A model generated the notes under the pieces. That model had not been told where the DNA came from, ran no database searches, and was given only the letters and a program-made list of their open reading frames with translations. DNA of 64,000 bases from Hemileia vastatrix (taxonomy: Eukaryota > Basidiomycota > Pucciniomycetes > Pucciniales > Zaghouaniaceae), in NCBI GenBank assembly GCA_030280995.1, contig JASXTE010000016.1, positions 22,067,501 through 22,131,500 of the forward strand. The letters run 5' to 3'. Shown here one piece after another: positions 11,787 through 46,992 of the stretch (position 1 is the stretch's first letter; every line of letters begins with the position of its first letter). The position numbers and the translations under genes are program-made.

Positions 11787-11797
11787 AGCCCATAACC
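11787..11797 (-). promoter_or_regulatory. copia 2 primer-binding site
   Basis: GGTTATGGGCT on the element strand, directly next to the 5' LTR, complementary to the anticodon-loop region of initiator tRNA-Met as in copia-type half-tRNA priming. Confidence 0.7.
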
Positions 11798-15810: not shown

Positions 15811-17029
15811 TTTTCAACAATGTTTCTTCTTACAAATTGTATTTTTTTTAAAATTCAGATTTTCTAAGTGTCCAAAGTAAGCTTCACACCATTTTTTCAT
15901 TTAAATTAATTTACATTTTTGATATTAAGCTTTATTCTCATTAGAAATGGATGATTTTCTATAAGATATGATGTTTGGATTGTTTAAAGATGTGAAAGAA
16001 GGAATTGAAGAATGAGATGAGGAGGACATATGTTGTGATGACTTAATTGATGGAATTGAAGAAAGAGATGAGGAGGACATATGTTCTGAAGACTTGATCA
16101 ATGGAATTGAAGAAAGAAAGGATGAGGAGATTTATGAAAGTGAAGAAAAAGATGAGGAAGACATATTTATTTTCTATTTTTGAAAAAAAAAGTTAGTAAA
16201 TTTTTTTGGAAATGTGCAGGGCATGCTTTCAAGGCAAAAAGAACAAAACTTACCCAAAACGCTCAGAAACAATCTAGAGTTCTTCTGGGACTGTTTCTGA
16301 AGTGATTTGGAGTATGAAAAAAGAGTTAGTAAAACACTTGGAAAGGTGCTGGGCGTGCTTCTAGCACATTTCCAAGGCAAAAAAAAGAAAAGAAAAATCT
16401 TACCAAAAACTCTTGGAAAAAGTCTACAATTGGTTTGGGACTGTTTCCAAAGCAATTTAGCCAAAAAAAACTAAAAAAAGTAAAAAAAAAGTCAGTAAAA
16501 ATAAAAGCATGATCAGGTATCACTCACCTTAAGTAAGTGTTGGAAGGGGCTTGAAGAGAAATATGACAAACATGTGAAGCTGTGAAAAAAAAACATGCCT
16601 TTATGAAAGGGCAGAAAAAAATGTAAAGAGGAAGAGAGTTGGGGGAATCTTGAAGGAGAATTGGATGATGATTAGGATATGTATTATGAAATGCATTCAG
16701 AAATGTGTTTTGAAATGTTTTCTGAAATGCATTATGAAATTTGAAACAGAAGAGTTTCAAGGGAATGAGTTGAGGGCCTTTGCCCACTGGGAAAGTTGAA
16801 TACATATAAATTGCATGTCCACCATGAAAAAAAAATAAGTCACAAGATAATTATGTAATTCAACACCTTTTTCAAGAAAGATTCTAAGAGATTTTCAAAT
16901 TTTGACCAAAAAAAATAAAATAAAATAAAATCAAGACCTTTTAGAGTTAAATAATTAAAAATTTAATTAATCAAGTAAATCTAGCAACTGTTTAATTTCA
17001 TCAGTTGTTTTTCCTGCCCTCAGACATGC
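15811..17029. other. interior of Harbinger A without a supported gene
   Basis: 15950-16170 encodes, on the minus strand, a low-complexity Ser-rich stretch made of three imperfect repeats (GGAATTGAAGA-AGAGATGAGGAGGACATATG type), comparable to the Ser-rich 5' end of the H1 TET gene. 16170-16530 has further repeats around TTTCCAAAGCAA and GTGCTGGGC. No clear ORF. Confidence 0.4.
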
Positions 17030-18621
17030 TAACATCAATTTTTGTCTGCTGCTTTTTTCTTCACTTTTTTTTGATTTAATTCATCATGTTGAAACTGTAA
17101 TTTTTCACTTTCCAACTGAAGCTGTTTATTTCTGAGTGTAATATTTTCTTCCCTTTCAAGCTTTAAGTTCTCTATCTCCATATTTAAACAATCTTTCTCA
17201 ATTTCTATAGAATTTTCATCCTTTTTGAGGAGGTGAAAGAATTTTTCTCTTCAAGTCTAAATCCTTGGCTTGCAGACTTTTCTTGAGACTCCATTTTCAA
17301 AATTTTTATTTGGGCTATTTCTTTTTATGCAACAAGTTTTACTTAAAAATCAAAGAAATATAAAAAAAAAATCATATAGAAATGAAAAAAATCAAATAAC
17401 CCTTACCTTCTTCATGTTTTTCCACAATTTCTCCATAAGTGGATAAGACTAATTTTGAACTTGATTGATTATTTGTGAAAGATGTTGAAGCTCTTCTTTT
17501 AAGTCTGTTTGGGGTTTAGATTGGCTCATCCTCTACACTGCTCCCAACATCTAAATCTTCATGAAATGTATCTTGATTCACTCTAGCTGGGGTCTGGTTC
17601 ATGATTGGTATAGGTGTTATTAGGTCAAAAAAGAAAAAAAAACTGTAGTAAAATTTGGAGGGAGGTTCTTGATAAAAGCCATTTAAATTCACAAAAACTG
17701 CATCATCTTTCTCATGGTCAGAATAGTTGCAAGCATCCTCTAAATCTTGTGTATTGAGTATTGGATCAATCAGCATGTCTAAATTGTAGTTATTTTCAGA
17801 ACCCAGTAGTTGGGAGTTCTCAGTGTGTAGAGGATTTACATCTTCTCTTTGCCCAAAGAGATCATCCATCTGTTGATAGAGTGGTAACATTGAATTGAGT
17901 TTTTCAGTGATTGAGGTGATTCCATTTTTTTGATCTTCTTCTGATACTCCAAAGCCAGTAGAAGAAGAAGCCATTTTTAATTTCTTGTATTTTGAATGAT
18001 AATTTTTGAATCTCTCCCTCATTTTCTTGGTTGTTAAGTCCATTTTAGCTTTTGTTTTATTTTTTAGTTCAATTGCCATTTTCTGATACCCACTGATTTT
18101 TAAGGCAGGTGGGTATCCCACACATGTAGACTTGTCACAGCCAAAACAGGCATCAAAGTTTGATTTTGTTTGCAACCAATTGATCACAATATGAAGGTCA
18201 CTCTTTGGTAGTTGAGTATACTTTTGATAAATGGTTTTTGGGCAAGGCATAGTGGAAATAAAATATGGAGAGGACAAAATTATTATTGCATGGTAAAATT
18301 TGATGGATAAGAAAGTGAAATCCTAACAAAGATTTAGTGAGATAAGATAAACTGAAATAGAAAAAAGAATAAAAACATGATCTTGAAAAGTGATGATAAA
18401 ATATAAGAAACGGAAAAACTTACAGTGATGATAAATATATAAATTTGAGCAGGAGTCCAGGATGATGTGGGATTGGGGGAAAAGGGGTTTGATGTACAGT
18501 GGATTTCAGGAATGTGTGTATTGATGGGCTGAACTGTGTTTGGGGTTATTTTGTGAGAATAGGAAGTATTTGATGAAGTCTTTGACCAAATTTTTGACAT
18601 GTCTAACCCCAAGTCAGCCAT
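17030..18621 (-). pseudogene. SANT/Myb-like plus coiled-coil protein gene of Harbinger A
   Basis: The main exon reads from ATG 18250 (MPCPKTIYQKYTQLPKSD) through VINWLQTKSNFDACFG, GYPPALKISGYQKMAIEL, RERFKNYHSKYKKLKMASS, STGFGVSEEDQ, LYQQMDDLFGQREDVNP. This follows the H1 protein step by step (INWLKTKSNYDSCFG, GYLLMANEL, SERFKHYRAKYKKAKALSS, STGFGVTDID). An upstream open segment (18621-18425, MADLGLDMSK...) ends at a GTAAGT donor and may be a 5' exon. An exon near 17580-17410 ends at EEG|GTAAGG. The coiled-coil exon (about 17300-17030) is full of stops. Decayed. Confidence 0.65.
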
Positions 18622-18699
18622 TTATGATGGCCTCTTGGAATGGCATTTTGAGAGTGAAGTCCGCCAGCTGTATATGGTAATATTTGACACCCCCAAATA

Positions 18700-20477: not shown

Positions 20478-20832
20478 TATTAGGGGGTATCAATGTTGAC
20501 CGATCCTCAATTAAATTAATTGCGGAAAATAATCTGCATACCCCAATTATCTTCCGCAATTATTTTTGCTAATAATTGGGTTATTAGAAACTTTACGTGT
20601 CAATGTTCACCTCTTATCTGACATTTTTTTACTCAATTTTCCATAACCACATCTTGGACAACTTTCTGGATATCCCAGCCTTCTACCTTGCTGCGCACTT
20701 CCATTCTCATCCCATCCTGTTCATTCTATCCGCTCAGAATTTCTCCCCATTTCATCTATTTGATTCTTCTCCTTTTCATCTCGCTATCTCATCTGCTTGT
20801 TTCTGATCCTTTTCACCTTCATTTATAATAAC

Positions 20833-22230
20833 ATGCCTCGTCATCCTAGATCTTCTCAAAGGCAGCCATCACCCAGTTGTTCTTCAATTCCCACTACTTC
20901 CTCTTTCCCCTGCTCAGCCAAGAAATCAAAGACTGTTCAATTAAAAAAAGATGAACATCTCATTCTTATCAACTGGCTGAAAACCAAATCTAACTATGAT
21001 TCTTGTTTTGGTACTGAGTATGCCACTAAAGTAGGACGGCCCCCCACATCAAAAGTTAATGGCTATCTTCTAATGGCAAATGAATTACACAATAAGACCA
21101 AGGGAAGGATTGATCTTTTGCCTAAACAGATGTCTGAACGCTTCAAGCATTATCGAGCAAAATACAAGAAGGCAAAGGCTCTTTCATCTTCCACTGGTTT
21201 TGGGGTTACTGACATTGATATAACTAAGGGTATAAAATCCATAGACAATAAACTTGATTCTTTATGTCCTTACTTTAAAGAGATGGATTCAATTTTTGGA
21301 GAGCAAGCTGATGTTAATCCTGTAAACATGTTGGATGGAGAAGATCCTATCTCCAAACATGATGTCGAAGCAAATCTTTTCCCATCCTCTTCCTCCACTC
21401 AAGCCTCCCCTCTTCTAAATTCTACGAATCTAGATAGCTTTGCTATTGATCCTATTGGCGATTTAACCCAACCTAATATAACTCAGGTCTGTTTCTTTTA
21501 TCTTATCAATTCTATTTTTTTATTTACTTATCTTTTTCTTATTTCTTAAAAGGCTGATGAACAAACCCAGGATCCTCAATCAACTGAGTCTGAAGCTAGT
21601 GACAATGATGAGGAGGAAAATGCTACGTTGAACAAAAAGAGAAGGGCTTCAACTAGTCTAAATTTCCTCTCCCAAAGAAGACGAAAAAGTGATACTTCAT
21701 CACAAACACCTTTTTCTTCAATGGAACAGTTTTTAGAGAAACGTGATGCTGGTAAGTGATATCATACCTCTTATTACTTTACTCTGCTTTTCTTCTACTT
21801 TATGTTAATTTTTATTCTCACTTTAGAACAAGTGGAAATTGCTAAAGAGACACTGAGCTTTGAAAAGAAGAAATACGAGCTCTCTTTAAGGAGGGATGAC
21901 AGAGTACAAGATTTGGAAGAGAGGAAGTATGAGCTCTCCTTACGGAAGGATGATCGGATCCAAGATTTGGAGGAGAAGAAGTTTGAGCTCTCTTTACAGA
22001 AGGATGGTAGGGCCCAAGATTTGGAGGAGAAGAAGTTTGAGTTAACTCTTAGTATTGAAAAATCCAAAAATAAGGAAAAAACACTCGAGCATCAAAACTT
22101 AATGGAACAGATGAAGTATAAGCATGATCTCCAAGAAAGTTCTAAAAAGAAAGATTTCTTGATCGAATGCATTAAAGCAAAAAAATCTGTTGAAGAAAAA
22201 GAACGTTTAATGAAATTTTTTGTTGACTAG
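20833..22230 (+). CDS. H1 SANT/Myb-like DNA-binding plus coiled-coil protein, 418 residues, three exons
   Basis: Exons 20833-21486, 21553-21751 and 21827-22230; introns 21487-21552 (66 nt, GTCTGT...AAAAG) and 21752-21826 (75 nt, GTAAGT...TTTAG). The joined length is 1257 nt in one frame. The start MPRHPRSSQRQ is chosen because H3 has the same start at 57076; an earlier ATG at 20797 is less likely. Residues about 35-150 carry a helical, basic domain (LILINWLKTKSNYDSCFG ... VGRPPTSKVNGYLL ... RFKHYRAKYKKAKA ... STGFG), like the SANT/trihelix partners that PIF/Harbinger elements encode. The C-terminus is a charged coiled coil with tandem 18-residue units (KYELSLRKDDRIQDLEEK). Known Harbinger SANT/Myb proteins bind element ends and bring the transposase to the nucleus; the same role is inferred here. 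No nonsense codon is seen. Confidence 0.82.
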
Positions 22231-22374
22231 TTTCTTTTATTTCTTTCACACTTCATGTGTTCATATTTATTTGTACATAAATTTTACAATTATTTTCTGT
22301 ATTTCTTGAAATATCGTATTTTAATGTTGAATATTCTTTTTTTAAATAAAATTTTCAAGTCTCCTTTGAAAATT

Positions 22375-22790
22375 TGACAATCCCCCACCCCTGGAATTTT
22401 TTGAAGTAAGGGGTGGGTATCACAAAAAATCTTTCATGTCATGAATCTTGAAAGTTTTATATGAAAATTTGGCTTTACTACCCCCTGCATTTTACCGGTA
22501 TCCCAAAAATTCTTACATGTCAAGAATTTCACAAGTCTTATAAGAAATTTTGGCACAACCCCCCATGGATTTTATTGAAGTAAGGGACGGGTATCACAAA
22601 AATATTTACAAGTAAAAAAAATTCTATATCTGTTTAAAAAATTGGCAATACTCTCCCCTGCATTTTATTGAAGCAAGGGGTGGGTATCACCAAAATTTTT
22701 CTAAGTCATCAATTTCACATGTCAGATTTGAAAATTTGGCAATACCCCCCCCTGCATTTTATTGAAGTAAGGGGTGGAAGTCATCTAAAT
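22375..22790. repeat. H1 minisatellite between convergent genes (about five 80-90-bp units)
   Basis: Units share CCCCCTGCATTTTATTGAAG, then TAAGGGGTGGGTATCACC and an A/T-rich part with TTTCACATGTC and GAAAATTTGGCAATA. The block separates the 3' ends of the SANT/coiled-coil gene (+) and the TET-like gene (-). Homologous blocks lie at 47935-48140 (H2) and 58640-59065 (H3). Confidence 0.8.
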
Positions 22791-23077
22791 TTAATATAAT
22801 TACATAAATTATTAAATAAATATCTAATATATATCAATTTCCCTAGTTTAAAGTAATGACAATCCCTCAAGCCAAAATGCAGACCAAGTCGAGAAACAAA
22901 AGTTTGGGACTTTCTACAGGTATAAGCAAGAGGAACCCCATGAAACAAATAAATGTTATCATGATTACGTGTTATACAACACAAGGTCAATGGCTCATCA
23001 CATTATTTGAGAAAATTGATATATAATAAATATTTATTAAAAATTTATGAAAAAATATAAAATTTTCGATGACAACT

Positions 23078-24326
23078 CTAATCCCCATACTTTTTGGATC
23101 TAGATAAAGTTTTTTTAAATCGAATAACTTTACCTTCTTTCTTTACCTTATTGATTCTTTGTATCAACTTATTACTGATTTGAAATGAGCAACCGAAATG
23201 AGTGAAATCTTGACAGGATTTCAAACCAGGAGGAGCTTTGGTCGTTTGATGATTATCCTTAGAAGAATTCCAAATAGTTTTGATGATACCATTTCCCAAA
23301 CCAAAATCAATGATGCACCGGTGGTCTGGAAAATATAAACCATGTCCTTTGATTTTAGCTGGAGATGGTATTGGGTGGCCAGTTATCGGATTGATATATG
23401 AGAATATTCCAAAAGTAAGAAAATTGGCATCATTCCTATCAATATGAATCCTATTGTGGAATCCAGAATGAGTGATAATAACATTAGAAAATAAAAGATA
23501 TTCATGGCTGATATCTTCCCATTCGGAGTCACACCAATTCGGTATTCCAACTTTGGTTGCAAGTTCATGATTTTTTTCAAATGCTTTATTACAAAGCTTT
23601 TTGAGTTGAAGAGCAAGAAAAGAATTAAAGTAGGGTAGAGTGTCCCATAAGCGAAAATCTTCGTCTTTTTGTGCTTTAGTGATATTATTGAGCAATGAAT
23701 ATATACCTATATAATTGAAATAAGTGAAATGATATTAAGAATGGAACAAAAATTATTAGACATACCAAGAGAATATCCTTTGACAAAACCAGGTCTCCAA
23801 CCAAAACCAATCATGATACCACCCAACAAATTCTTATTCCTTATAGGTAATTGAACCAAAGCCATTTGATAAAGAGTTATGATAAGATCGGATAGTTGAT
23901 TAAAAGCTTCATCTTTTACACCATCGAATGAATGAACTTCCAAAATGAATTGAGGCTTAAAAGCATTGCTGATAACTGCAACAACTCGATCATCTCCAAA
24001 TTCTGTTAGATATTTGATATCTTCTGGTAATTTTTTTGGATATTGATTTTTTTATCTACTTTAGTTTTACAAAAAAAAAATGTTTGGGATATGACAAAAA
24101 TAACTTTCGCAGAGAGACTTTTTTTTAAATATCTTTTCTTCTGATGAGACTGATTATCTTTAATTTTTTTTGATGATTTAGAAGATGATTGTATGGAAGT
24201 TGATTTCAAAGAAGATGATAGAGTTGATTTCAAAGAAGATGATAGAGATGATAAAGATGAAGATGATAAAGAAGATAAAGATGAAGATAAGAGAGAAGTA
24301 AGGGGTGAATCAGAAGAAAAAGACAT
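23078..24326 (-). CDS. H1 TET/JBP-like 2OG-Fe(II) dioxygenase
   Basis: Core exons: about 24030-23766, then 23706-23078, joined over a 59-nt intron (23707-23765, GTATGT...ATATAG) giving KGYSLG-IYSLLNNITK. The core has FILEVHSFDGVKDEAF, GFGWRPGFVKGYSLG, SNVIITHSGFHNRIHIDRND (HxD: His-Ile-Asp), FGIFSYINPITGHPIPSPA, KGHGLYFPDH, IDFGLGNGIIKTIW and DNHQTTKAPPGL (likely distal His). Layout and context fit the fungal Tet-like 2OG-Fe(II) oxygenase family, which is predicted to oxidise 5-methylcytosine; that activity is inferred, not shown. A Ser-rich, Lys-rich segment (24326-24035, MSFSSDSPLTS...) lies upstream in another frame; the switch falls in A-runs near 24040, so either a homopolymer indel or an unrecognised intron separates them. 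Confidence 0.62.
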
Positions 24327-24935
24327 TTTTTTGATCTGAAAAAAAAATTAATTGTCAATAAAATTTTAACTCAATTTTTTTTTAAAAAAAATTCCTACCT
24401 AATAATAAAAAAAGCTGTTTTTTTATTTTAAAATAAAATTGAAAAAAAACCAAAAAATCAGTAAAAATTTTTCCAAAAAAAAAATTTATAAAAAAAAACC
24501 TGAGGTTTTATTTTAAAAAACACAATCAAAGCAAAATCCTATTAAAAAGAAATTAATAATTAAATTCATTCAAAAAAGAAAATTTCAGTAAGAATTAAAT
24601 CACAAAAAAAATTTTAAAAAAAAAATTAAAAGTGGACCTGAAGATTGGTTATTAAAAACCTTCTCACAAGATCATGAAAAAAAAAAAATAATCAGTAAAA
24701 TCAAAATAAAAAATAAAAAAATTATTTAAATAAAATCAAAATCACAAAAATTAATTATAGAAAAAATAAAAATAAAATTATAAACCTTTTTTGTTTTGTA
24801 AATAAGAGGGACAGTCCTTATCAGAAAGAATTTTTTTTTTTTCTATATTACTGCAAAAAAAATAAAAAAAATAATCAAAATTACAAACAAAAATTTGTTA
24901 GTATCTTTATTTGAAAGTTGGTAACCCATCTTTAT
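24327..24935. other. A/T homopolymer-rich spacer in H1, no gene
   Basis: Very A-rich sequence with many A-runs of 6-10 and no supported ORF; it lies upstream of the TET-like gene and may hold its promoter. Confidence 0.4.
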
Positions 24936-25700
24936 CTCCCATAAATGTCCCCTTTTCCCCCTCAAATGCTCTCCTTGCCTGCCTCAAAATCCCCCTGAAA
25001 TACCCCCCTTTCCCCCCTGTTTAGGTCCCTCATCACCCTCCTTCCCCACTCTTTAGCTGCCTCAAACCCCCCCATTCCCCCCTCTTTAGCTGCCTCAAAC
25101 CCCCCCCATTCCCCTCACCTTAGGCGCCTCAAACCCCCCCCATTCCCCTCTCCTTAGGCGCCTCAAACCCCCCCATTCCCCTCTCCTTAGGCGCCTCAAA
25201 CCCCCCCATTCCCCTCTCCTTAGGCACCTCAAACCCCCCCTTCCAATCACCTTACCCCCTCCCAAACCCTTTCCCCTTTCTCTACACCCACCCCCCCCCC
25301 CCCCCCCTCCTTGTTAACAAACGATCTGTAACGATCGTTCGTTAAAAAACAGGGGGGGGGGTAGAGGAGGATATAACGATTGGGTAGGGGGGGAAGGGGG
25401 GGTGTTTGAGGCGCCTAAAGAGAGGGAAAGGGGGGGTTTGATGTGGGTAAAGAGAGGTGAAGGGGGGGGTTTGAGGCGCCAAAAGAGAGGTGAAGGGGGG
25501 GGTTTGAGGGACATAAAGAGAGGGGAAGGGGGGTGTATTGAAGCACCTAAAAAGAGGGGAAGGGGCGTGATGAGGGACCTAAAGAGGGGGGAAAGGGGGG
25601 ATTTGAGGCAGCTAAAAAGGGGGTAAAAAGGGGGTCAGAGACAGGTAAAGAGAGGGAAAAAGTGGGGCCTTGAGGATGATAAAGAGAGGTGAAGGAGAGA
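24936..25700. repeat. large inverted repeat of C-tract and G-tract minisatellites in H1
   Basis: The left arm (about 24936-25308) is a tandem array of about 34-bp units such as GCCTCAAACCCCCCCATTCC / CCTCTCCTTAGGC. The right arm (about 25350-25690) carries the inverse units (GGGGGGTTTGAGGCGCC / TAAAGAGAGGGGAAGG). The centre holds a run of about 16 C, the palindrome AACGATCGTT (25330-25339) and a run of 10 G. On the plus strand the first arm is C-rich and the second G-rich, so a hairpin or G-quadruplexes could form. Short ORFs called here are artefacts. Confidence 0.85.
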
Positions 25701-25809
25701 AAAAAAAACAAAAAAATAAAAAGATAAAAAAGAGAAAAAAGCAAAACAAAAATTAGTTTACCCTAGAACAAAAATAATAGAAGCACTTACAAAAAAAACA
25801 AAAAAACCA

Positions 25810-25840
<31 letters not shown>

Positions 25841-26188
25841 ATCATGATTAGCAAATAAAAAACCATGAAAAAAGAAAAAAAATGACCTACCTGGTGAGTT
25901 GAGTTGAGAAAATAAATGCAACCAAAATATTTGAGGGATGTTTGAGGAGAGGATGAAAAGGATATGAGTGATGAATGAAAAAAAAAATCACTGACAAAAT
26001 ATGCGATATAAGAAAATATGTGATTTCATGTTGAGGAAGTGAAAGAAAACCAATGAGCCATCAAAAAAAAAGATATTCACCGTAAATTCAAAAAAAAAAT
26101 GAATATGCAACAAACCAAAATACAAAACCAAGTGATTAAAGTACACAAAGAGGACATTTGGAAAGTATGAAAACATAAAAATTAAAAA
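25701..26188. other. H1 spacer shared with H2, no gene seen
   Basis: A-rich. The part 25870-26170 is homologous, in the same orientation, to 50020-50290 in H2 (shared CTTACCTGGnGAG, GAGGGATGTTnGAGGAGA, AACCAATGAGCCATC). It lies immediately downstream of the transposase stop codon in H1. Confidence 0.5.
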
Positions 26189-27499
26189 TTAAAAGGGTGA
26201 AGAGAAATGTTGGAGAGTAATTGGAATTATAATGGGGCGTATGCCGGTTGATTGAATGATTTGTGAATCAAGGGAGGGGAGTGCCAGTGGTGGTTCAGGA
26301 TCCTCTTCTTCATAAAGATCATTCCACTCATCCTTTAAATCAGCTAGAATATTGTGGAGTATTACGCAAGTCAAGATCCAATGATTTGCAGTTTTGATCT
26401 CCAATTTTTTTTGAAATTGGATTCTGAGCTCCCGAAGACTAGAAAATCGTCCCTTTAAAATACCTATAGCATGTTCAATTCGTACTCTTGATTGTGCAAG
26501 GTGATAATTAAATTTAGTTTTGGGGTCATTTTCTGAAGTTGCACCACGGAAAGCAGGTATAATGTACTTTCCACTTGCATATGCTGAGTCTGCAAGGAGG
26601 TACTGAGATTCGTCAAAGTATGATTCAGGGGATTGAGAAATCCTCATTCTTTGGAAGACGGAAGAGTCATGACATGATCCAGGGCAGCCACTGTGAAAAG
26701 CAATAAATTTTTTATTGACATCGCATACAAGTTGAACGGCAATAGAGTATCTAGAAAGAAGATAAAAAGTTAGATTGTGAAAGATGAGAACTTGGAGAAG
26801 ATTTTGAAGAAACCTTTTTTTGCGATCAAAATAATGGTTGCCATCATGAGCTGGCTTTTGACTCAAAGGGATGGTTGTGCCATCAACAAAACCTATACAG
26901 CCAGGGAAACCTTCAGCTTGCATTACTTGAGAGGATTCAAGTCGCTGTTCTGGAGTTGGCCAAGCAAGAGTTTGAGACTTGAGGGAAAGGATAGCAATCA
27001 TACAGCGCTTGGTGTATAATATCACGGTACCATATCCTATGTTAAAGAGATTATCCAAACGTCTTACGGCAGCACCATTTCCATTTGAGCCAAAGCGACA
27101 TAGAGCAACAGCAAGTTGGATGGCAGGATTACACTGTTTGTTATGAGAATTGTTATGGAAGATAGGATGATCGGAGATGAGTTGATAAAGTTTGAAGAAA
27201 GAATCGGGAGAAGTTCTAAAAAGTTGTGTGAAGTTTAAATGAGGAATGTTGAGAATGGAGGCCAGATCATATTGGGGATCATGATAAAGATTTGGCCCCC
27301 TGGTGATGATGTAACGCTTTTTGGAGAAAAAACACATATAAGCTAAAGCATCTTCCAAATCAGATTCAGATTTATAGTAAAGAACTAAAAGAAAAGTAAT
27401 AGCATTCATTGTTGAGTGAAGTAGCTTCCTAGTAGAGAGGTGTTTCATTGTTTCCGGTGTAAGGGTTATGTGATGAGGGAAGTGGGAATTCACCGCCAA
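26189..27499 (-). CDS. H1 PIF/Harbinger DDE transposase, apparently intact
   Basis: Exon 1 is 27499-26814 and exon 2 is 26750-26189, with a 63-nt intron (26751-26813, GTTTCT...TTCTAG). The intron is a multiple of three and happens to be open, so unspliced it reads as 436 residues; spliced it is 415. The intron position matches the 71-nt intron in element A. Catalytic acids (unspliced numbering): Asp206 in GFVDGTTIPLSQKPA, Asp304 in LLADSAYASG, Glu342 in RIEHAIGILKGRF. GCPGSCHDSSVF lies between. The N-terminal part (VALCRFGSNGNGAAVRRLDN) is a helix-turn-helix-like segment typical of HARBI1-type nucleases. It catalyses cut-and-paste excision and integration, in known Harbingers together with the SANT/Myb partner. 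It runs towards the TET-like gene on the same strand. No defect is seen. Confidence 0.9.
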   Translation of the reverse strand: MAVNSHFPHHITLTPETMKHLSTRKLLHSTMNAITFLLVLYYKSESDLEDALAYMCFFSKKRYIITRGPNLYHDPQYDLASILNIPHLNFTQLFRTSPDSFFKLYQLISDHPIFHNNSHNKQCNPAIQLAVALCRFGSNGNGAAVRRLDNLFNIGYGTVILYTKRCMIAILSLKSQTLAWPTPEQRLESSQVMQAEGFPGCIGFVDGTTIPLSQKPAHDGNHYFDRKKRFLQNLLQVLIFHNLTFYLLSRYSIAVQLVCDVNKKFIAFHSGCPGSCHDSSVFQRMRISQSPESYFDESQYLLADSAYASGKYIIPAFRGATSENDPKTKFNYHLAQSRVRIEHAIGILKGRFSSLRELRIQFQKKLEIKTANHWILTCVILHNILADLKDEWNDLYEEEDPEPPLALPSLDSQIIQSTGIRPIIIPITLQHFSSPF

Positions 27500-27566
27500 A
27501 TGTGCAGTTGGGGTATGTAGATAGAAAAAAAACTTAAGTGTTCGCCACCAAAATTAAGTAGCATAG

Positions 27567-28743
27567 TGTCAGTATAGTCTAGTATATAAGTATGAAATAA
27601 TAGTTTTATTTTATGGTCCTACTACTTATTAATAAATGATTTAGTGATTAAACCTCAGGGGAAGACTAATAGAATAGTTATACTCAAATAAAACTCACAA
27701 TACTTGGATTTAAATGCGTGCTAGTGATGGAAAATAGAAGAATAAAATATAGTTATAGCTTTTATAAAGATAATATCAATTTATAAGGGCTTTATAATAT
27801 ATTTCTGAATACTAATAATTGTATTGTAGTGTTTGTTTGAAGTGTAGTAATTGAATGATGATAATAAACCGTCAAAATCCCCCCTAACTTATACCCAAAT
27901 CCACTGGAGTGCACAGACCTTCAATCCAGATGATGTCACTGCTATCCCCGGCAATTACAGCACTGTGAGGGCCCATAACCTCTCCATGGCGTCCACTTCA
28001 AGCAGTTTCAACACCCAGACCTCCAGTAAGGACCCTCCATCACTATTAATAATAACACAGAGTCATACCATAAATAGAAAACCCAGATAAAAGCGGATAC
28101 CATAAAGAAACAGGTAAAATAAATAATCAAAAAGAGATTTAATGAAACTAAAAGCATATAAAGGAAACAAATAAAATTTCCAAGCCCCCAATAACATCCC
28201 CAAGCATCCACATTAACCCAGAAACATCCTTCCAACCCATAAATCCGTGAATAACCATCCAAGGAAGTAATTTGAGTTGTCCAAACTGGGTGTATGCACC
28301 TGATATAGGTGTCTATGCTTCTGTAGGCGTTGGGAGTCCACTGATTTCGTCCATATGACCTAAAATAAGCAGAAAAACAAAGGTTATAGGCTATTAAGGG
28401 GCTAAAACCCACTTATATACCTAAATATACATAATATACTGCATATTTCACTGAATATGAGATTTATGTATACATATAAGCTTATGTATGTCAATAATTA
28501 CTTCATATCACTTAAGATAAGTATATTATGACTCCATTAACACCTTAATAAGTATTATTAGGCCATGGATAAGCTATTTAAACTATTATAAATTATATAA
28601 TAGAATAATAATTATATATATATATAATAAAATAATATATATTATTATTTTAACCTTATTTTTAAGATATAAGCTTAATCTAGTTAAGGTTATCTTATTT
28701 TAAGCATAAGAAATACTCAGTCCTAAGGATATTTAGGCTGACA
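27567..28743 (-). repeat. gypsy 1 3' LTR
   Basis: Plus strand TGTCAGTATAGTC...TTTAGGCTGACA. Directly inside (about 28744-28765) CTCCCTCACCCC plus an A-run is, on the element strand, a polypurine tract followed by TGTCAG. Confidence 0.93.
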
Positions 28744-28861
28744 CTCCCTCACCCCAAAAAAAAACAATAAAAAAAATGTTAAGACATTTTAATTAATCTT
28801 AAGGAATGAAATAATAAAATAAAAAAATAATTTTTATAATACATATACTGAATGAACAGTA

Positions 28862-29188
28862 TTATTTAGATTTAAATTTTTTCAAGAGATTATTAAGATC
28901 AGAGATTTCATTTTCTGGAATCCACTGGTTATATTCACTTGATTTATTTTTAAATCTTAATTGATACTCAACTCCCTTTTCTTTAGTAAGGTGTCTCTTT
29001 TTAAGTATCTTTTCAATTTCTGCCTTTTCCACTATTTCCTCAGGTTGCTGTTTATGCCTACCTGATCTTCTTGGAAATAGAGAAGTATCATTAGAATGGT
29101 ATGGTTTAATAAGAGAAATAGGAAATACTGGATGTTTTCTATCATAAGGTGCATATAGAATAACTTCAACAGCATTATTACCAACCAT
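28862..29188 (-). pseudogene. gypsy 1 pol C-terminus with chromodomain
   Basis: In frame with the upstream integrase fragment but separated by a single TGA (DPFI-stop-PFVVKKMVG). It begins with the SH3-like integrase tail (YAPYDRKHPVFPISLIKPY), then a chromodomain: EKAEIEKILKKRHLTKEKG, EYQLRFKNKSSEYNQWIPEN, DLNNLLKKF. Chromodomains in fungal chromoviruses target integration to heterochromatin. Confidence 0.82.
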
Positions 29189-29206
29189 CTTTTTAACTAC
29201 AAATGG

Positions 29207-30922
29207 TCAAATGAATGGATCCTTCAATTTAACATTACCATTTAAATTGAAATGTAGCATTGAAATAAGGACTTCATCACCCTCTTTGAACATTTGTTCT
29301 TTATGGGCTTTATCCCATCTTTTCTTTTCATACTCAAAAGCCTTATTTATACATTCTTGAGCATGTTTTCTGCATAATTCCTGCATCTGAAGAAAAGATT
29401 TAGTACCTGGATGAATATCCAATCTAGGTAACTTATTAAGAGTTTTAGCAGGGGTATTAGGTACATAACCCAACCATAACTCAAATGGCTTTTTGCCAGT
29501 GACAGAATGTACTGTACTATTATATGCAAATTCTAAACCTGGGATAAGGGTTACCCAATCATGCATGAATTTGTCATTGTCTTTAAAATTAAGACCAAAA
29601 GCACAGTATCTTCTTATCATATCTTCTAAGGTTTGTATCATTCTTTCTGCTAGCCCATCAGTTTGTGGATGGTGTGCTGTAGAAATTTTTAATTGACACC
29701 CTGAAACATCCATAAGTGACGTCCAGAACTCAGAAGTAAATTTAGGATCTCTGTCAGAAACTATTGCTTTGGGGAAAACTGCTGTATTTAACATTTGTGT
29801 CCACCATAAAAAAGCTAAGTCCTTTGCAGAAACCTCTTTGTGGGTAGGAATAAATTTACACATCTTTGTAAATCTATCTACAATTACCCAGCAGGAGTTA
29901 TAACTCTTATGCCCTGCTATTGGCAAACCTGTTACAAAGTCCATGTTAATGATTTCCCATGGAGCTTTTGGTTGCTCAATTTGTTGTAATAAACCAGCTC
30001 TTTTTCCTGTTAATCTTTTAGATTTTTGACAAGAATCACATGTTTCAACATATTTCTGAACATCCTCAGACATGTTAATCCACCAAGCTGTGTTTTTTAC
30101 TCTGGTTAATGTTTTATGGTAGTCAAAATGACCTGCTAATATATCATCATGACATATACTTAACATTAACTCCTTCATTGAAGGGGGAATTACAATTACA
30201 TTACTTAATTTTTTCCTGTAATATATAAAACCATCCTCAATGGAAAATTTTCCTTTCTCTAATGCCTCTTTATACTTATTTGGTAATGTTTTTATTAAAA
30301 CATTCATTGAAGCATTAGATGGATCATTTAATATTGTAGTTAATTTACTTAAGTCAGGATCTGAATTATAATTATCAAGAATTGATTGCATAAATTCATC
30401 CTCAAGATCTACAATATAAATGCCATAAATGTTAATAATCTCTGACTCAGGAACATAAGCAGGATTATCATCATTATTAGGCAGAGGTACTCTAGATAAC
30501 AGATCTACATTAGAGTGCAAGGTTCCTGCTCTATGTGTAATAGTCATCCGTCCTCTGTATTCTTGTACAGCTAATTGCCATCTAAACATGTGTCTATTAG
30601 GAGTTTTCATGTTTAAGAGTGACTTAACTGCACTACAGTCAGTTATTAACTCAAATTTTTGGTCTTCAAGGTAATAATGTAGCTTTTCAAGAGCCCATAC
30701 TACTGCCAAACATTCAAGTTGAGTAGCACCATATTTCAATTCACCACTTCTCAGAGTACATGAAATATAGCAGATTACTACTTCTGAAATTTTACCTTCA
30801 ATAAGTTGTTTTTGATGTAAAGCAGCACCTAGTCCAATAAAACTTGCATCTGTATATAATACAAAAGGTAATTGGAAATCTGGTAATCCCAAGATAGGAG
30901 CTGTCATTAAACATTCTTTCAA
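29207..30922 (-). pseudogene. gypsy 1 pol middle part: RNase H and integrase
   Basis: Follows the RT part after one TAA (30941-30943; FIWNN-stop-RQKAFNKLKEC) in the same frame. RNase H: LYTDASFIGLGAALHQKQ, then TDCSAVKSLL. Integrase: HHCC zinc domain (GHFDYHKTL ... CDSCQKSKR), core NMDFVTGLPIAG (Asp), VSDRDPKFTSEFW (Asp), AHHPQTDGLAERMIQT (Glu). The catalytic triad is complete; only the two nonsense codons break the polyprotein. Confidence 0.9.
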
Positions 30923-30943
30923 CTTATTAAAAGCTTTTTGTCT

Positions 30944-33900
30944 TTAATTATTCCAAATGAAAGCTTCTGATTTCTTTATCAGTGTGGTCAGTGGTGCAGC
31001 AATTGATTGGTAGTTTTTTATATATTGTCTATAATAACCACACATTCCAAGAAAAGATTGTACATCCTTCACATTTTGAAGAATTCCAATATTCTTTATT
31101 GCAGCCACTTTATTTTGGTCTACACATATTTGTAAGCCAGATACAATATGACCAAGCACTTTTAAAGATTCAAACCCAAATTTACATTTTTTCAATGCAA
31201 GGGTCATTTTTATTTCATCCATTTTCTGAAATACTTTCCTTAAATGGATTAAGTGTTCATCAAAAGTTTTAGAGAACACTATGATGTCATCAATGTATAC
31301 CATTAACCATCCCTCAATCATTTCATTATGGAATGTTATATCCATTAACTTTTGAAATACTGATGGAGCATTTTTTGGTCCAAATGGCATTCTGACATAC
31401 TTATAAATTCCCATGTGTGTTGTTATCAACAAAAAGTTCTGTGAATTCTTTTCAACAGGAATTTGATGGTACCCTTTATTTCCATCTAGGCAACTTATAT
31501 ATTTAGCACCTTTAAGGGTAGCATGTATAGAGGCAATCCTTGGCAAGGGATAAATATCATCTACTGTAAATGTATTTAATGCTCTATAATCACCGCACAG
31601 TCTTGCTTTATCTTGTTCATAAGAAATCAACACTGGTGATATTACACAATATTTTGGTTTAGCTTCAACCTTCTCAAGAATGTTCATTTTTAATAACATC
31701 TTAATATTATCCTCTATGTCTTTCCTCTTCATTTGTGAAGCAGGGTATGGTTTCTTTTTAAGACTAGTAGGAATATTATCCATATCACAGGTTAAACTAA
31801 TTTTCATTTCATGTTCTTTTACAAGGCCAAGTTCATTTGTACCATGTGCAAAAGCTTTAATTAATTCCAAAATATTATCTTTCTCAGTTTCACTTATCTG
31901 AGTGCCAAATGATGCTTTTGAAATTTCTGTTTCCAGAAGTTCCAACTCATTGGATTCTCTTCCTTTAGACGGGGAATTTGTTACTGACTCAATGTGTAAG
32001 ACAGTGTTAAAAGAATTTATTTTAAATTTCCTTTTACCATTCATGCCAATTGTAAAATTGTTATTAGCAGGGTCTAATTTTACACCAAATTTAGTCAGAA
32101 TATCATTTCCAATGATAAAACAGTTACTAAAATTTGTATTATCCATTACTACAAAGTCACAAGTTACCCTTACATAACCATATTGGTGTTTAAAGAAAAC
32201 AGCAGCTTTGTATTTACCAATGGGGTGTAGTACTGATCCAAAACCTCTCCAATTTTTTTTCTGAAGTATTTCAAGCTTAAACTTATATTCACTATCAATT
32301 TTCTGTAATGTATTAGTGGAAACAACTGAACCAGCAGCTCCTGTGTCCAATACTATATTAACATTTTCACCAGAAATGATAGCTGGAACCGTGATAGGTG
32401 TCATTCTAAAGTTATCAGCTTGTATATCCTTAATGATTTCAGCATCCTCAAAATTCATTAAAGATTCATTTGAGTCCATATTTAATATTGGATTTTCAAA
32501 GATGGACAAATCATCTTCCAACATACAGACTTCATTTTCATCACTATATGAGATATTTCTGTCATAATCACTTGATTCTTTACTTTTTTCAGTTTCAGTT
32601 TCAGATTCACGTTGATTTTCAACAATATTTATGTTTTTCTCACATTTGTGACCTTTGACCCAAGGTTTGTTACACTTATAACAAGTATTTGTTTCATAAT
32701 TTTTAGGTACTACAGGTGCAGTAGGTTTTTTCTGCTTCTCCTGAAGTGTTTTTGAATTCTGAGTTTTTACAGGTTCAACATTTTGCTTATAAGTGGAATA
32801 CCTTGATTCATACTTATGGTTTAATAATATTTCATTGCAAATATTAATAAAGTCAGAATATTCAGTAACATTTAATGTTCTAGCTACAACAATGTCTCTG
32901 ACAGATATAGGTAATTTGTATATTATCTTATCTTTCCATAAGTTAAAATCCATATGAGGCTCAATGGCTTTTAATATTTTGTTTAAATTCATTAAAAATA
33001 CCATAGGTTTGTCACCATTCAACGGATTATACCTAGTCTTCTCATACAGTCTCTGCTGAGTAAGCCTGAATTTAGAACCTCCAAATTGTTTTTCAATAAG
33101 TTGTTTCCATTCAGCCCAAGAGTAGTCTCTACCCTCACTTAAGACAGCTTCAAACCATAATAAAGCAACATCCTTAAATAAAGAAATTAATTTTGATGTT
33201 ATCTCTTCATCTGGTAACTTATATGAGAATTTCAAGTTGTCAATTCTTTGAATAAAATGTTGCCAATCAGAGCTGGCTTCCCCATCATAAGTTGGGTACT
33301 GATCTATCTTAGGCCAGTTCTTCTGATTGGATTTTATCTCACTAATCTTAGGTAAATTCAACAACTCATTCACTTTTGATAAATGGTCTTGTATTTCTTC
33401 CTGCACGGATTTGTGACTTACATTTTCAGATTTGACACTACCACCAGATGGTTTTAATTGTGGTGGTACAGGGAAGGAATGAGATTCACTTTTGCCAATG
33501 AAAGGATTATTATTATATTGATTATACTTATGATTATCCTGGTTCATTAGTAGATTGGCAGTTTCAATCTCAACTTTAGTTAATCTTTGTAGCAACTCAG
33601 AGACACTTTGATTTGTCTGTGCAAAAGATAACTTTGTTCTTGATTCAGTCTTTAATAAGTGTGTTTCATATAATTTTTCTAACTCACAAAATTTGTTTGA
33701 AAGGTCATTATATTTATTACTCAATGAATCATATTTAAGAGTTAGAGACAAATGTTCTTTCTCTAATTCTTTATTACGTGTTGCTAATTGAGAAATGTTC
33801 AATGTCAAGGATGAAATTGTATCACTAGTGAGCTTAACTGTCTGTTCCTCACAATCAGTCATTCTATTCCACAATGCTGAAACAATTCTATGGACAGTTG

Positions 33901-34717
33901 GATTATTGTTAAAATATTCCATGTCCTCCTTTTCAATTCTCTCACTCTCCTGTGAAATTCTCATCTCACTAGTAGGTGGTTGCAACTGAGGATTAACTGT
34001 ATTATCATTGTAAATAGTACTGTTATTATGGACAAAAGATAAGTCAGGTGTATCTACTCTAAAACCTAAATTTCTTAAATCCTCCTCTATCTTTTGTACA
34101 GATTTAACATCAATAGAATTACCTATATTGTAATTATCAGTATTATGTCTAATCTGAGAGGGTAAGTTACTTACCAAGGGATGGTTTCCAGTCCTGATTT
34201 TTGGTGCTTTTTTCCCTTGTAAGGGTGAGCTGAGGAAGTCAGATGAGGGGGTGGATCCCTGTTGCAACTGTGACTTGTCCACTGTTGGTGAAACCAGTCC
34301 CATTTCCATTTGTCTACCAGGATTTTCTCCTGGGAGTGAGTGGACCCTCCTTGGGTAGGGGGTTTCTGATTTGATTGACTGGGCTGGCCTCCCTTTAATT
34401 CTGCCATTGCCTGATTCATCTGCTGAAACCCTACCTTGCAATTGTTTTGCAACTGCTCTACTTCTTTGAACATGAGAGATTTTGATTCCTCCAGCTTCAG
34501 AACCTGTTTGGCCAGGTGGGACAGTTGATCCTGAAGAGGAGGAGACGTCTTTTTTATAGTTATCTTTTTTAAGAGGGCGTCCTTTTCCTCTATACTCATG
34601 CTTTCTGGCTGGGGGTACTGTTGTCCCTCCATGGTGATGTCCTGGAAAGTTTTTGTTAGCTTTAGACCTGGTATTATAAGCAGGCTGTTCACTTACACTA
34701 TCCTGGGGAGCACTCAT
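30944..34717 (-). CDS. gypsy 1 gag, protease and reverse transcriptase
   Basis: 1257 codons open. The N-terminal ~200 residues are Ser/Pro/basic and overlap the +1-frame ORF at 34171-34692. Residues about 260-400 are coiled coil (TSLTLNISQLATRNKELEKE type heptads). The capsid region is about 465-630 (YPTYDGEASSDWQHFIQR ... WAEWKQLIEKQFG), followed by a zinc knuckle variant CYKCNKPWVKGHKC (CX2CX7HXC). Aspartic protease: NIVLDTGAAGSVVS. RT: RLCGDYRALNTFTVDDIYPL, then MPFGPKNAPSVFQKLM and VYIDDIIVFS (YxDD). The frame ends at the nonsense codon 30941-30943 before RNase H, so pol is truncated unless the stop is read through. Confidence 0.92.
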   Translation of the reverse strand: MSAPQDSVSEQPAYNTRSKANKNFPGHHHGGTTVPPARKHEYRGKGRPLKKDNYKKDVSSSSGSTVPPGQTGSEAGGIKISHVQRSRAVAKQLQGRVSADESGNGRIKGRPAQSIKSETPYPRRVHSLPGENPGRQMEMGLVSPTVDKSQLQQGSTPSSDFLSSPLQGKKAPKIRTGNHPLVSNLPSQIRHNTDNYNIGNSIDVKSVQKIEEDLRNLGFRVDTPDLSFVHNNSTIYNDNTVNPQLQPPTSEMRISQESERIEKEDMEYFNNNPTVHRIVSALWNRMTDCEEQTVKLTSDTISSLTLNISQLATRNKELEKEHLSLTLKYDSLSNKYNDLSNKFCELEKLYETHLLKTESRTKLSFAQTNQSVSELLQRLTKVEIETANLLMNQDNHKYNQYNNNPFIGKSESHSFPVPPQLKPSGGSVKSENVSHKSVQEEIQDHLSKVNELLNLPKISEIKSNQKNWPKIDQYPTYDGEASSDWQHFIQRIDNLKFSYKLPDEEITSKLISLFKDVALLWFEAVLSEGRDYSWAEWKQLIEKQFGGSKFRLTQQRLYEKTRYNPLNGDKPMVFLMNLNKILKAIEPHMDFNLWKDKIIYKLPISVRDIVVARTLNVTEYSDFINICNEILLNHKYESRYSTYKQNVEPVKTQNSKTLQEKQKKPTAPVVPKNYETNTCYKCNKPWVKGHKCEKNINIVENQRESETETEKSKESSDYDRNISYSDENEVCMLEDDLSIFENPILNMDSNESLMNFEDAEIIKDIQADNFRMTPITVPAIISGENVNIVLDTGAAGSVVSTNTLQKIDSEYKFKLEILQKKNWRGFGSVLHPIGKYKAAVFFKHQYGYVRVTCDFVVMDNTNFSNCFIIGNDILTKFGVKLDPANNNFTIGMNGKRKFKINSFNTVLHIESVTNSPSKGRESNELELLETEISKASFGTQISETEKDNILELIKAFAHGTNELGLVKEHEMKISLTCDMDNIPTSLKKKPYPASQMKRKDIEDNIKMLLKMNILEKVEAKPKYCVISPVLISYEQDKARLCGDYRALNTFTVDDIYPLPRIASIHATLKGAKYISCLDGNKGYHQIPVEKNSQNFLLITTHMGIYKYVRMPFGPKNAPSVFQKLMDITFHNEMIEGWLMVYIDDIIVFSKTFDEHLIHLRKVFQKMDEIKMTLALKKCKFGFESLKVLGHIVSGLQICVDQNKVAAIKNIGILQNVKDVQSFLGMCGYYRQYIKNYQSIAAPLTTLIKKSEAFIWNN
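34171..34692 (-). CDS. overlapping +1-frame ORF of gypsy 1 (coiled coil plus KWKWDW motif)
   Basis: 173 codons inside the 5' end of gag, in the +1 frame. Contents: PQPESMSIEEKDALLKKI, a coiled coil (LSHLAKQVLKLEESKSLMFK, EVEQLQNNCK), a Gln/Pro/Ser linker, then EKILVDKWKWDWFHQQW, HPYKGKK and a terminal IPW. Gypsy 2 has the matching ORF at 62596-63156 with EKVEVSKWQWDWLNTQW, HPYQGGK and KPW. The Trp-rich motif is conserved in this frame and much less in the gag frame, so this frame is probably translated. Function unknown. Confidence 0.6.
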   Translation of the reverse strand: MNSLLIIPGLKLTKTFQDITMEGQQYPQPESMSIEEKDALLKKITIKKTSPPLQDQLSHLAKQVLKLEESKSLMFKEVEQLQNNCKVGFQQMNQAMAELKGGQPSQSNQKPPTQGGSTHSQEKILVDKWKWDWFHQQWTSHSCNRDPPPHLTSSAHPYKGKKHQKSGLETIPW

Positions 34718-35228
34718 ATTGTTCAGAATAACAATATTTTACGTCTACAAAAGGAAAAAACTCTATGGAATTAGTAGACAAAAGATATTAGCAATTATAT
34801 TACTAATAAAAAAGCAATGGAGCTTACCCTGAATTTATATTTTTATTTATTTAAATAAAATATAAGAAAAATTTGAAAAAATCTGTTAAAAATATAATAA
34901 TAAGTTTAACTAGACCTCTATAAGGGTGAATAATTAGCTTACCAAGCTTTAGCCAAATACCAATTTAATTGGGTGTTATATTGGTGTCCAAATACCAAGT
35001 GAAATTGGGTTTATATTGGGTACAGTTACTACTGTAAATATCTAATTTTTATGATAAAAAATTAGTACAATTATTATAAGGGTTCTTTTCGGCAATCAAT
35101 GAGTTATTATGACCCACTAATATGCAGCAGACCCAAATATTTGGTTAATTTTGAGCTGTACTAAGGTAAAAATCACGTCCCAAGGCTTATAATAAATAAT
35201 AAGTAAAATATAAGGAAAGACCCCCAAT

Positions 35229-36405
35229 TGTCAGTATAGTCTAGTATATAAGTATGATATAATAGTGTTATTTTATGGTCCTACTACTTATTAATAAATG
35301 ATTTAGTGATTAAACCTCAGGGGAAGACTAATAGAATAGTTATACTCAAATAAAACTCACAATACTTGGATTTAAATGCGTGCTAGTGGTGGAAAATAGA
35401 AGAATAAAATATAGTTATAGCTTTTATAAAGATAATATCAATTTATAAGGGCTTTATAATATATTTCTGAATACTAATAATTGTATTGTAGTGTTTGTTT
35501 GAAGTGTAGTAATTGAATGATGATAATAAACCGTCAAAATCCCCCCTTACTTATACCCAAATCCACTGGAGTGCACAGACCTTCAATCCAGATGATGTCA
35601 CTGCTATCCCCGGCAATTACAGCACTGTGAGGGCCCATCACCTCTCCATGGCGTCCACTTCAAGCAGTTTCAACACCCAGACCTCCAGTAAGGACCCTCC
35701 ATCACTATTAATAATAACACAGAGTCATACCATAAATAGAAAACCCAGATAAAAGCGGATACCATAAAGAAACAGGTAAAATAAATAATCAAAAAGAGAT
35801 TTAATGAAACTAAAAGCATATAAAGGAAACAAATAAAATGTCCAAGCCCCCAATAACATCCCCAAGCATCCACATTAACCCAGAAACATCCTTCCAACCC
35901 ATAAATCCGTGAATAACCATCCAAGGAAGTAATTTGAGTTGTCCAAACTGGGTGTATGCGCCTGATATAGGTGTCTATGCTTCTGTAGGCGTTGTGAGTC
36001 CACTGATTTCGTCCATATGACCTAAAATAAGCAGAAAAACAAAGGTTATAGGCTATTAAGGGGCTAAAACCCACTTATATACCTAAATATACATAATATA
36101 CTGCATATTTCACTGAATATGAGATTTATGTATACATATAAGCTTATGTATGTCAATAATTACTTCATATCACTTAAGATAAGTATATTATGACTCCATT
36201 AACACCTTAATAAGTATTATTAGGCCATGGATAAGCTATTTAAATTATTATAAATTATATAATAGAATAATAATTATATATATATATAATAAAATAATAT
36301 ATATTATTATTTTAACCTTATTTTTAAGATATAAGCTTAATCTAGTTAAGGTTATCTTATTTTAAGCATAAGAAATACTCAGTCCTAAGGATATTTAGGC
36401 TGACA
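35229..36405 (-). repeat. gypsy 1 5' LTR
   Basis: Near-identical to 27567-28743. Just inside (35214-35228) the element strand reads ATTGGGGGTCTTTCC, so the primer-binding site is TGGGGGTCTTTCC starting 2 nt from the LTR end, with the usual TGG start. The region 34720-35213 is untranslated leader without a gene. Confidence 0.93.
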
Positions 36406-36554
36406 CATAGAGTGAGGAAATACCTAAGGATGGCATCAGCAATTATAAGTCATGTGACTTTCTTAAAAATCCATCATGGATGAGATGAGTTTGGGATCAG
36501 GAATTAGGAATGGAAATTGGGGTATAAGAGGCGGGATAATGCATTATCGTGGAT

Positions 36555-36590
36555 TTCTTATCCACTAGCCCTGGGGCTAGTGGATAAGAA
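36555..36590. promoter_or_regulatory. perfect 36-bp palindrome near the right end of H1
   Basis: 17-bp arms TTCTTATCCACTAGCCC and GGGCTAGTGGATAAGAA around a TG centre, about 80 bp inside the right TIR. It is next to a TCCGCAATTAAT motif. The left end has no equivalent. It could be a binding or cruciform site. Confidence 0.7.
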
Positions 36591-37036
36591 TCTTCCGCAA
36601 TTAATAATGTCTGATCCCGGGAAAAAAAATTCCTGATCCCTAATTGCGGATCCCTGAACATTGATACCCCCTATTAAGTACATAAGACTTATAAAAGATG
36701 GATATATGCATTTATATAAGGTACTATAATGGCATATATTGTATTTTATCATAAAATTTACTCATGTACACAACTTGTGTACCTTTATTTATTGTTCCAA
36801 TTTATACTAAATTTGTTTAAAATAGTTTATAAGTGCTTTTGACTCAGTCCAGGGAATATCCATGCTGACAAAAGCAAGCAGGAATGAGTTGGCTAAGACC
36901 TGAGATGACACCTGTATCTGGCATCAAAGGGAAGGGAAAAGGTTTGATAAATCAGCAGCAAGTTGTTGGAATCAAGAAGCTGGTGGGTTTGACTTTTACT
37001 TCATCACAAAGTGGAACTGCTTACTACAATGCAATA

Positions 37037-45226: not shown

Positions 45227-46992
<1,766 letters not shown>

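What the first reader, a model, noticed from the sequence alone, without database searches (positions are those of the whole stretch)
20483..36671. A PIF/Harbinger transposon that appears to carry a TET/JBP-like dioxygenase with its transposase and SANT/coiled-coil protein
Seen: between matching TIRs and TATTA duplications lie an intact-looking DDE transposase, a spliced 418-residue SANT/coiled-coil gene and a gene with the HxD...H layout of 2OG-Fe(II) oxygenases. The same trio recurs in A, and parts in H2 and H3, so it is not a chance insertion. Known: fungal TET/JBP genes are reported as expanded with KDZ-type DNA transposons, and PIF/Harbinger elements normally carry only a transposase and a Myb/SANT gene. 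Inference: this element brings its own 5mC-oxidising enzyme, which could undo methylation silencing of its ends.
Basis: partly seen in the sequence, partly recalled or inferred. Interest (0 to 1): 0.92.

Follow-up and report, generated by a model that had tools for sequence, protein, structure and literature searches.

The report
Fungal transposon carrying a demethylase-like gene
This is a cut-and-paste jumping gene from what looks like a rust fungus that carries, besides its transposase and a possibly DNA-binding partner, a gene resembling the enzymes that oxidise methylated DNA; elements of this kind were described in a paper of December 2025, and this genome shows a young family of them that itself bears methylation-type mutations.

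Summary
Confirmed: window 20482-36672 (H1) is a PIF/Harbinger-type transposon holding a DDE transposase, a TET/JBP-like 2OG-Fe(II) oxygenase (PF20515, E 1.2e-37) and a third protein, with a nested Ty3/Gypsy element. Of 23 other loci read, 20 hold all three genes and 3 hold two, each beside at least one Harbinger terminus. The idea is in print: Kojima 2025 (PMC12730594) describes TET+ Harbinger elements ('PHISTA') in Puccinia and Austropuccinia and proposes anti-silencing. Added here: (1) the target-site duplication is 3 bp (AAT/ATT), shown by empty sites, not TA or TATTA; (2) the third protein gives a weak Myb/SANT-like signal; (3) oxygenase dN/dS between subfamilies is 0.10; (4) C>T at CpG is 28-fold in excess in subfamily F2, worst at TCG, with no detectable sparing of the ends, so protection is at best partial; (5) a chimera with a dead oxygenase segment has 40 or more copies. 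Oxidation of 5mC is unproven; the oxygenase fold prediction failed.

The parts
20482..36672 (.). H1: TET+ PIF/Harbinger-type transposon, subfamily F1, including a nested retroelement
   Evidence: inverted ends, TSD, empty sites in L005, L009, L010
20479..20481 (.). 3-bp target-site duplication ATT, left
36673..36675 (.). 3-bp target-site duplication ATT, right
20482..20513 (+). left terminal inverted repeat (AGGGGGTATCAATGTT...)
   Evidence: pair I24
36641..36672 (-). right terminal inverted repeat
   Evidence: pair I24
20833..22227 (+). third gene, 418 aa after splicing (introns about 21487-21552 and 21752-21826, read by eye from GT..AG); weak Myb/SANT-like N-terminal domain, C-terminus coiled-coil-like by eye
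23078..24024 (-). TET/JBP-like 2OG-Fe(II) oxygenase core (PF20515), intron 23707-23765 (59 nt)
24009..24326 (-). N-terminal Ser-rich part of the oxygenase, in a different frame from the core (probable frameshift)
   Evidence: compared with the uninterrupted frame in L010/L012
25000..25660 (.). C-rich tandem array, CGATCG palindromic core, G-rich tandem array upstream of the oxygenase gene (hairpin-forming)
26189..27448 (-). DDE transposase (DDE_Tnp_4), 419 codons open, including a short in-frame intron-like insert
27567..36406 (-). nested Ty3/Gypsy LTR element (LTRs 27567-28744 and 35229-36406, 99.2% identical)
56708..60470 (.). copy A (F1): left end, third gene and oxygenase (oxygenase exon 2 with one stop); further part not delimited
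5558..18695 (.). H2: third subfamily (F3), reversed, degenerate, with nested Ty1/Copia and a solo LTR; oxygenase orientation flipped relative to H1
46992..50736 (.). H3: non-autonomous chimera, F2 ends and transposase fragment plus a dead F1 oxygenase segment in flipped orientation

Best explanation
H1 is an old copy of a TET-carrying PIF/Harbinger transposon. Shown: a DDE transposase, a third protein and a TET/JBP-like oxygenase lie together between the same termini in many copies, insertion duplicates 3 bp, and the elements form diverged subfamilies, one young with open frames. Inferred: transposase plus the SANT-like partner do the cutting and pasting as in other Harbingers; the oxygenase oxidises methylated cytosine, on element DNA or more widely in trans, and so delays methylation silencing or C-to-T mutation long enough for the family to transpose. 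It does not keep resident copies clean: they decay at CpG/TCG. I rate the anatomy about 0.97, purifying selection on the oxygenase about 0.9, and the anti-silencing role about 0.6.
For: PF20515 match with HxD...H present in four relatives at 36-43% identity. All three genes in 20 of 23 loci, two of three in the other 3; oxygenase and transposase in the same orientation in 21 of 21 loci having both. Young subfamily F2: 9 copies 96.1-98.6% identical; transposase free of stops outside its intron in 5 of 9 copies, and in a sixth over the part aligned; 389-codon oxygenase frames in 3 of 5 copies examined. These F2 copies were picked largely for hits without stops, so intactness is overstated. dN/dS between H1 (F1) and F2: oxygenase exon 2 0.099 (0.051-0.168), transposase 0.127 (0.070-0.203), third exon 1 0.228 (0.147-0.446). 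C>T in F2: CpG 69/1545, other C 30/18870, TCG 41/559: a methylation-like attack exists. Same proposal in PMC12730594 (sections read).
Against: No activity, expression or methylation data. Ends are not visibly spared: F2 left end 3/90, right end 5/126, whole element 69/1545 (low power). CpG observed/expected gives no clear advantage over other elements: H1 core 0.368, nested Gypsy 0.138, Copia in H2 0.523, window 0.283. A same-age TET-free control family was not examined. Fold prediction failed and no relevant solved structure matches by sequence. The usual 2OG-contact Arg after the distal His is not obvious in the alignment (the expectation is recalled). All 8 C5-methyltransferase exon matches lie on four contigs of 44-159 kb, probably foreign at least in part; none on a chromosome-size contig.
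Confidence: 0.6

Rival explanations
1. The oxygenase acts in trans over much of the genome, not on its own element in particular; the family benefits only because genome-wide methylation is lowered.
For: Ends of resident copies show no reduced CpG decay; chimera H3, whose oxygenase segment has four stops and whose transposase is truncated, still has 40 or more copies. In Coprinopsis and Laccaria oxidised 5mC is reported on retrotransposons too (PMC12730594 section 4.2).
Against: High copy number of a costly global demethylase should be counter-selected (reasoning only); no direct data.
Confidence: 0.25
2. The enzyme modifies something else (6mA, thymine as in JBP, or a 5mC glyceryl-type reaction) and has a role other than anti-silencing.
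For: The paper says the function of transposon-borne fungal TET/JBP genes is not experimentally validated and leaves other activities open; no fold or substrate evidence here.
Against: The elements bear a strong CpG/TCG C>T signature, so 5mC is the natural candidate substrate.
Confidence: 0.1
3. The oxygenase is a passenger picked up by recombination and not used by the element.
For: It appears to move between subfamilies: F1-F2 oxygenase is 81% identical while transposase is 59% and third protein 57%; F3 is at 56-59% for the oxygenase and about 54-57% for the others; orientation is flipped in H2 and H3.
Against: dN/dS 0.10 with upper bound 0.17 and open frames in young copies.
Confidence: 0.05

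Closest known systems
PHISTA: TET+ Harbinger-type transposons of Puccinia and Austropuccinia (Kojima 2025, PMC12730594; abstract, search passages, sections 2.1, 3.1, 3.4, figure legends and part 1 of 2 of section 4 read; supplements and figures not seen)
   Same: DDE transposase, TET/JBP-like oxygenase and a third protein between short TIRs, in Pucciniales. Nearest named relatives of the transposase are Puccinia (51-52%) and Austropuccinia (47%); the third protein has P. striiformis homologues (39-44%), one with a gene number next to a related transposase on a contig of the same length (Pst134EB_012414/012415).
   Different: TSD here is 3 bp AAT/ATT rather than TA; the third protein gives a weak Myb/SANT-like signal whereas the paper says none contains that domain. 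I did not see the paper's elements, so whether they are members of the same families is untested.
Nuwa / canonical PIF-Harbinger elements (Myb/SANT protein plus transposase, 3-bp TSD; as described in PMC12730594 section 3.1.4)
   Same: 3-bp duplication, DDE_Tnp_4 transposase, a possible SANT-like partner on the opposite strand.
   Different: Extra oxygenase gene; TSD is AWT rather than the TWA recalled for classic PIF/Harbinger.
KDZ (Kyakuja, Dileera, Zisupton) elements with TET/JBP genes
   Same: Fungal DNA transposons with a TET/JBP gene.
   Different: Different transposase superfamily; 8-bp TSD in the Dileera example Zisupton-1_PGr (PMC12730594 section 3.1.1).

Membership tests
PIF/Harbinger superfamily | DDE_Tnp_4 transposase | tested here: met
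   PF13359 E 2.3e-26, 92.7 bits, cut-off 24.8; 220 homologues, 120 listed, some named HARBI1 by their source
PIF/Harbinger superfamily | 3-bp target-site duplication | tested here: met
   3-mer identical on both sides in 16 of 18 elements; 3-bp model best or tied best in 17 of 17 scored empty-site comparisons, 8 insertions. The recalled TWA sequence is not met: it is AWT
PIF/Harbinger superfamily | Myb/SANT-like second protein | tested here: inconclusive
PHISTA (Kojima 2025) | TA dinucleotide TSD | tested here: not met
   2-bp TA model best in 0 of 17 empty-site comparisons
PHISTA (Kojima 2025) | TET/JBP gene plus third protein with a Harbinger-like transposase, in Pucciniales | tested here: met
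   host lineage inferred from nearest named proteins only
TET/JBP 2OG-Fe(II) oxygenases | PF20515 profile match over cut-off | tested here: met
   130.4 bits against 27; F2 111 bits, F3 piece 64.4 bits
TET/JBP 2OG-Fe(II) oxygenases | HxD...H iron-binding triad | tested here: met
   HID/HTD and HQTT in H1 and F2, HxD and H(Q/H)TT in P0001-P0004, read by eye from alignment A2
TET/JBP 2OG-Fe(II) oxygenases | double-stranded beta-helix fold | tested here: inconclusive
   AF2 model mean pLDDT 32.5, unusable
TET/JBP 2OG-Fe(II) oxygenases | oxidation of 5mC | not testable with these tools
   needs biochemistry

The most novel reading that the evidence does not exclude
The third (SANT-like) protein and the oxygenase work as a self-targeting demethylation pair: the SANT-like protein binds sites in the element, perhaps the recurrent C-rich / palindrome / G-rich inverted array just upstream of the oxygenase gene, and brings the oxygenase there, while the oxygenase gene is traded as a module between Harbinger subfamilies.
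Probability: 0.1. Interest if true: 0.85.

Novelty: new variant of a known kind. Interest (0 to 1): 0.5.

Why it matters
The class was published only in December 2025. This 748-Mb genome offers a natural experiment: a young multi-copy family with open frames, older subfamilies, pre-insertion sites, oxygenase-dead derivatives that still multiplied, and a clear CpG/TCG mutation signal. That makes the anti-silencing idea testable from methylome reads. The 3-bp duplication (firmly) and the SANT-like partner (tentatively) remove, for this genome, two of the differences the paper gives for separating such elements from Nuwa-type Harbingers.

Tried and rejected
Tried without result: AF2 of the oxygenase (pLDDT 32.5; 9-row alignment and a read-through intron). 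PDB sequence searches with both alignments gave nothing relevant. Foldseek alone gave no significant match for the third protein (best E 1.7). A separate nested element carrying the oxygenase was considered; no second set of termini was looked for systematically around the gene, but the constant orientation in 21 of 21 loci with both genes argues against it, whereas the flipped orientation in H2 and H3 argues for some mobility of the segment. TATTA as a 5-bp duplication was rejected: it ties with the 3-bp model in 12 of 17 comparisons and loses in 5, and in L010 and L027 the two 5-mers differ. In one search, 16 of 20 comparisons gave an overlap of 3-5 nt; the others gave 8, 13, -3 and 2. Three of the 20 were dropped: a second LTR of the same element (L014 against window 36276) and the two with overlaps 13 and -3 (L011 and L027 against their own loci). 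Spanning hits of L013 and L026 were not taken further (L013 was loaded but not compared). The LTR pair in H1 differs at 9 sites, one of CpG type, too few to serve as a control. The host methyltransferase question stays open: three of the four contigs with PF00145 matches have 45-48% GC in the stretch read against 33% in the window, and I judge the fourth (L038) animal-like from its sequence (recalled), so contamination is likely. Whole-genome counts for transposase and third protein were never obtained. Loci L005-L008 were not scanned for gene context.
Full report
What was checked. The window lies in an unnamed 747.6-Mb, 791-contig genome (C531:22067501-22131500). The nearest named proteins of all three genes are from rust fungi: Austropuccinia psidii for the oxygenase (34-38%; two unnamed proteins score higher), P. 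striiformis for the third protein (39-44%; one unnamed protein at 58%), P. coronata, P. striiformis and A. psidii for the transposase (47-52%). I therefore take the host to be a rust; it was not identified to species.

Anatomy of H1. Inverted ends (36-nt arms, 86%, including the flanking TATTA) enclose, from the left, the third gene (+), the oxygenase (-) and the transposase (-). Between transposase and right end sits a Ty3/Gypsy element with 99.2% identical LTRs, so the transposon itself is about 7.3 kb. The oxygenase core matches PF20515 with E 1.2e-37. Its N-terminal stretch is in a different frame; in subfamily F2 the same stretch continues in one 389-codon frame, so H1 is probably frameshifted.

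Genome copies. A protein search reported 256 matches, a lower bound (133 of 18026 candidates scored); a PF20515 profile search scored 150 of 10849 candidates, all over cut-off, none in 14 control genomes. I read 23 loci of about 10 kb for context: 19 (10 of the roughly 80%-identity class, picked mostly for hits without stops, and 9 of the H1 class) and 4. 16 have both TIRs in the stretch, each with three genes; 4 more have three genes with one end outside the stretch or not found (L009, L020, L023, L036); L022 lacks the third gene and L024 and L035 the transposase in the stretch read. Oxygenase and transposase point the same way in 21 of 21 loci with both. Two subfamilies result: F1 (H1-type; five full copies, 88.8-94.8% identical) and F2 (nine copies, 96.1-98.6%). 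H2 in the window is a third, F3.

Target-site duplication. In 16 of 18 elements the 3-mer next to the terminal A/T is the same on both sides; L012 fails by one extra C and the 209-bp element at 43252 by one base. For eight insertions an empty site in fetched sequence was scored. Scoring nine models in 17 comparisons, 3 bp with element ends AGGGGG..CCCCCT is best or tied best in 17, TA in 0, 5 bp tied in 12 and worse in 5; three of the 20 comparisons were dropped first (see Tried and rejected). This differs from the TA reported for PHISTA.

Selection and module exchange. Between H1 (F1) and F2, dN/dS is 0.099 (0.051-0.168) for oxygenase exon 2, 0.127 (0.070-0.203) for the transposase and 0.228 (0.147-0.446) for third-gene exon 1; pN of the oxygenase is lower than both others in 2000 of 2000 bootstraps, but its dN/dS is lower than the transposase's in only 1412. 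Synonymous distances are near saturation. Protein identities F1-F2 / F1-F3 / F2-F3 are about 81/59/56% for the oxygenase, 59/57/56% for the transposase and 57/54/55% for the third protein, which fits a shared, more recent oxygenase in F1 and F2, or stronger constraint. In H2 and H3 the oxygenase is flipped. H3 is an F2-ended element whose middle is a 93% match to the F1 oxygenase segment, with four stops in exon 2. Its junction is 100% identical over 201 nt at 40 places (40 of 957 candidates scored). Of these, 4 were fetched and all are H3 relatives at 96.6-98.0%, three over most of the length and L032 over 1-2856 of 3743. So dead oxygenase pieces ride along on mobile ends, in line with the paper's passive transfer.

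Mutation pattern. Against the commonest base per column, F2 copies show C>T at CpG 69/1545 and at other C 30/18870; TCG is highest at 41/559. F1: 240/1384 against 650/20926. TCG hypermutation in Pucciniomycotina repeats is cited in PMC12730594. By region the F2 rate is 3/90 and 5/126 at the two ends, 16/270, 11/324 and 14/396 in the three genes, 0/36 and 20/303 between them; no region differs at p below 0.06. The elements are therefore attacked by a methylation-linked process, and no local protection is visible in resident copies, though the counts at the ends are small. CpG observed/expected in neighbouring retroelements is both lower (0.138) and higher (0.523) than in H1 (0.368), so it neither supports nor excludes protection.

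Literature. PMC12730594 (parts read: see Closest known systems) reports fifteen TET+ Harbinger families in six Pucciniales species, names the lineage PHISTA and proposes escape from silencing. Searches (20 of 31, 1 of 1 and 15 of 31 papers listed) showed no other paper whose title or abstract start is about TET-carrying Harbinger elements; other listed papers were not opened.

Verdict. A real TET+ Harbinger; the headline is already in print, and this work adds a revised duplication, a tentative SANT-like partner, and selection, mutation and chimera evidence. Whether the protein oxidises 5mC remains inference.

Noticed in passing
25000-25660: C-rich tandem array, palindromic CGATCG core, G-rich tandem array upstream of the oxygenase; C-rich then G-rich tracts in 10 of 10 copies checked (6 F1, 4 F2) with different repeat units; hairpin energy z -17 for H1 against 20 shuffles.
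   Followed up: partly
46993-50735: The junction of the H3-type chimera occurs at 40 or more other places with 100% identity over 201 nt.
   Followed up: partly
13900-14097: Cys-rich ORF on the minus strand between transposase and oxygenase of H2, weak Zn_clus match E 0.21.
   Followed up: no
11921-13056: Single LTR-like copy, 88.7-89.2% identical to the LTRs of the Gypsy element nested in H1, inside H2.
   Followed up: no
39026-40422: Long self-similar repeat block of about 1.4 kb.
   Followed up: no
43252-43460: 209-bp element with GGGGGTATCA ends, MITE-like.
   Followed up: no
L034:495-519: Two F1 ends abut, sharing one TAATA, as if one element had inserted in the duplication of another.
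   Followed up: no
L037-L040: C5-methyltransferase matches only on contigs of 44-159 kb, three with GC 45-48%, one animal-like by my reading: possible contaminant contigs in the assembly.
   Followed up: partly
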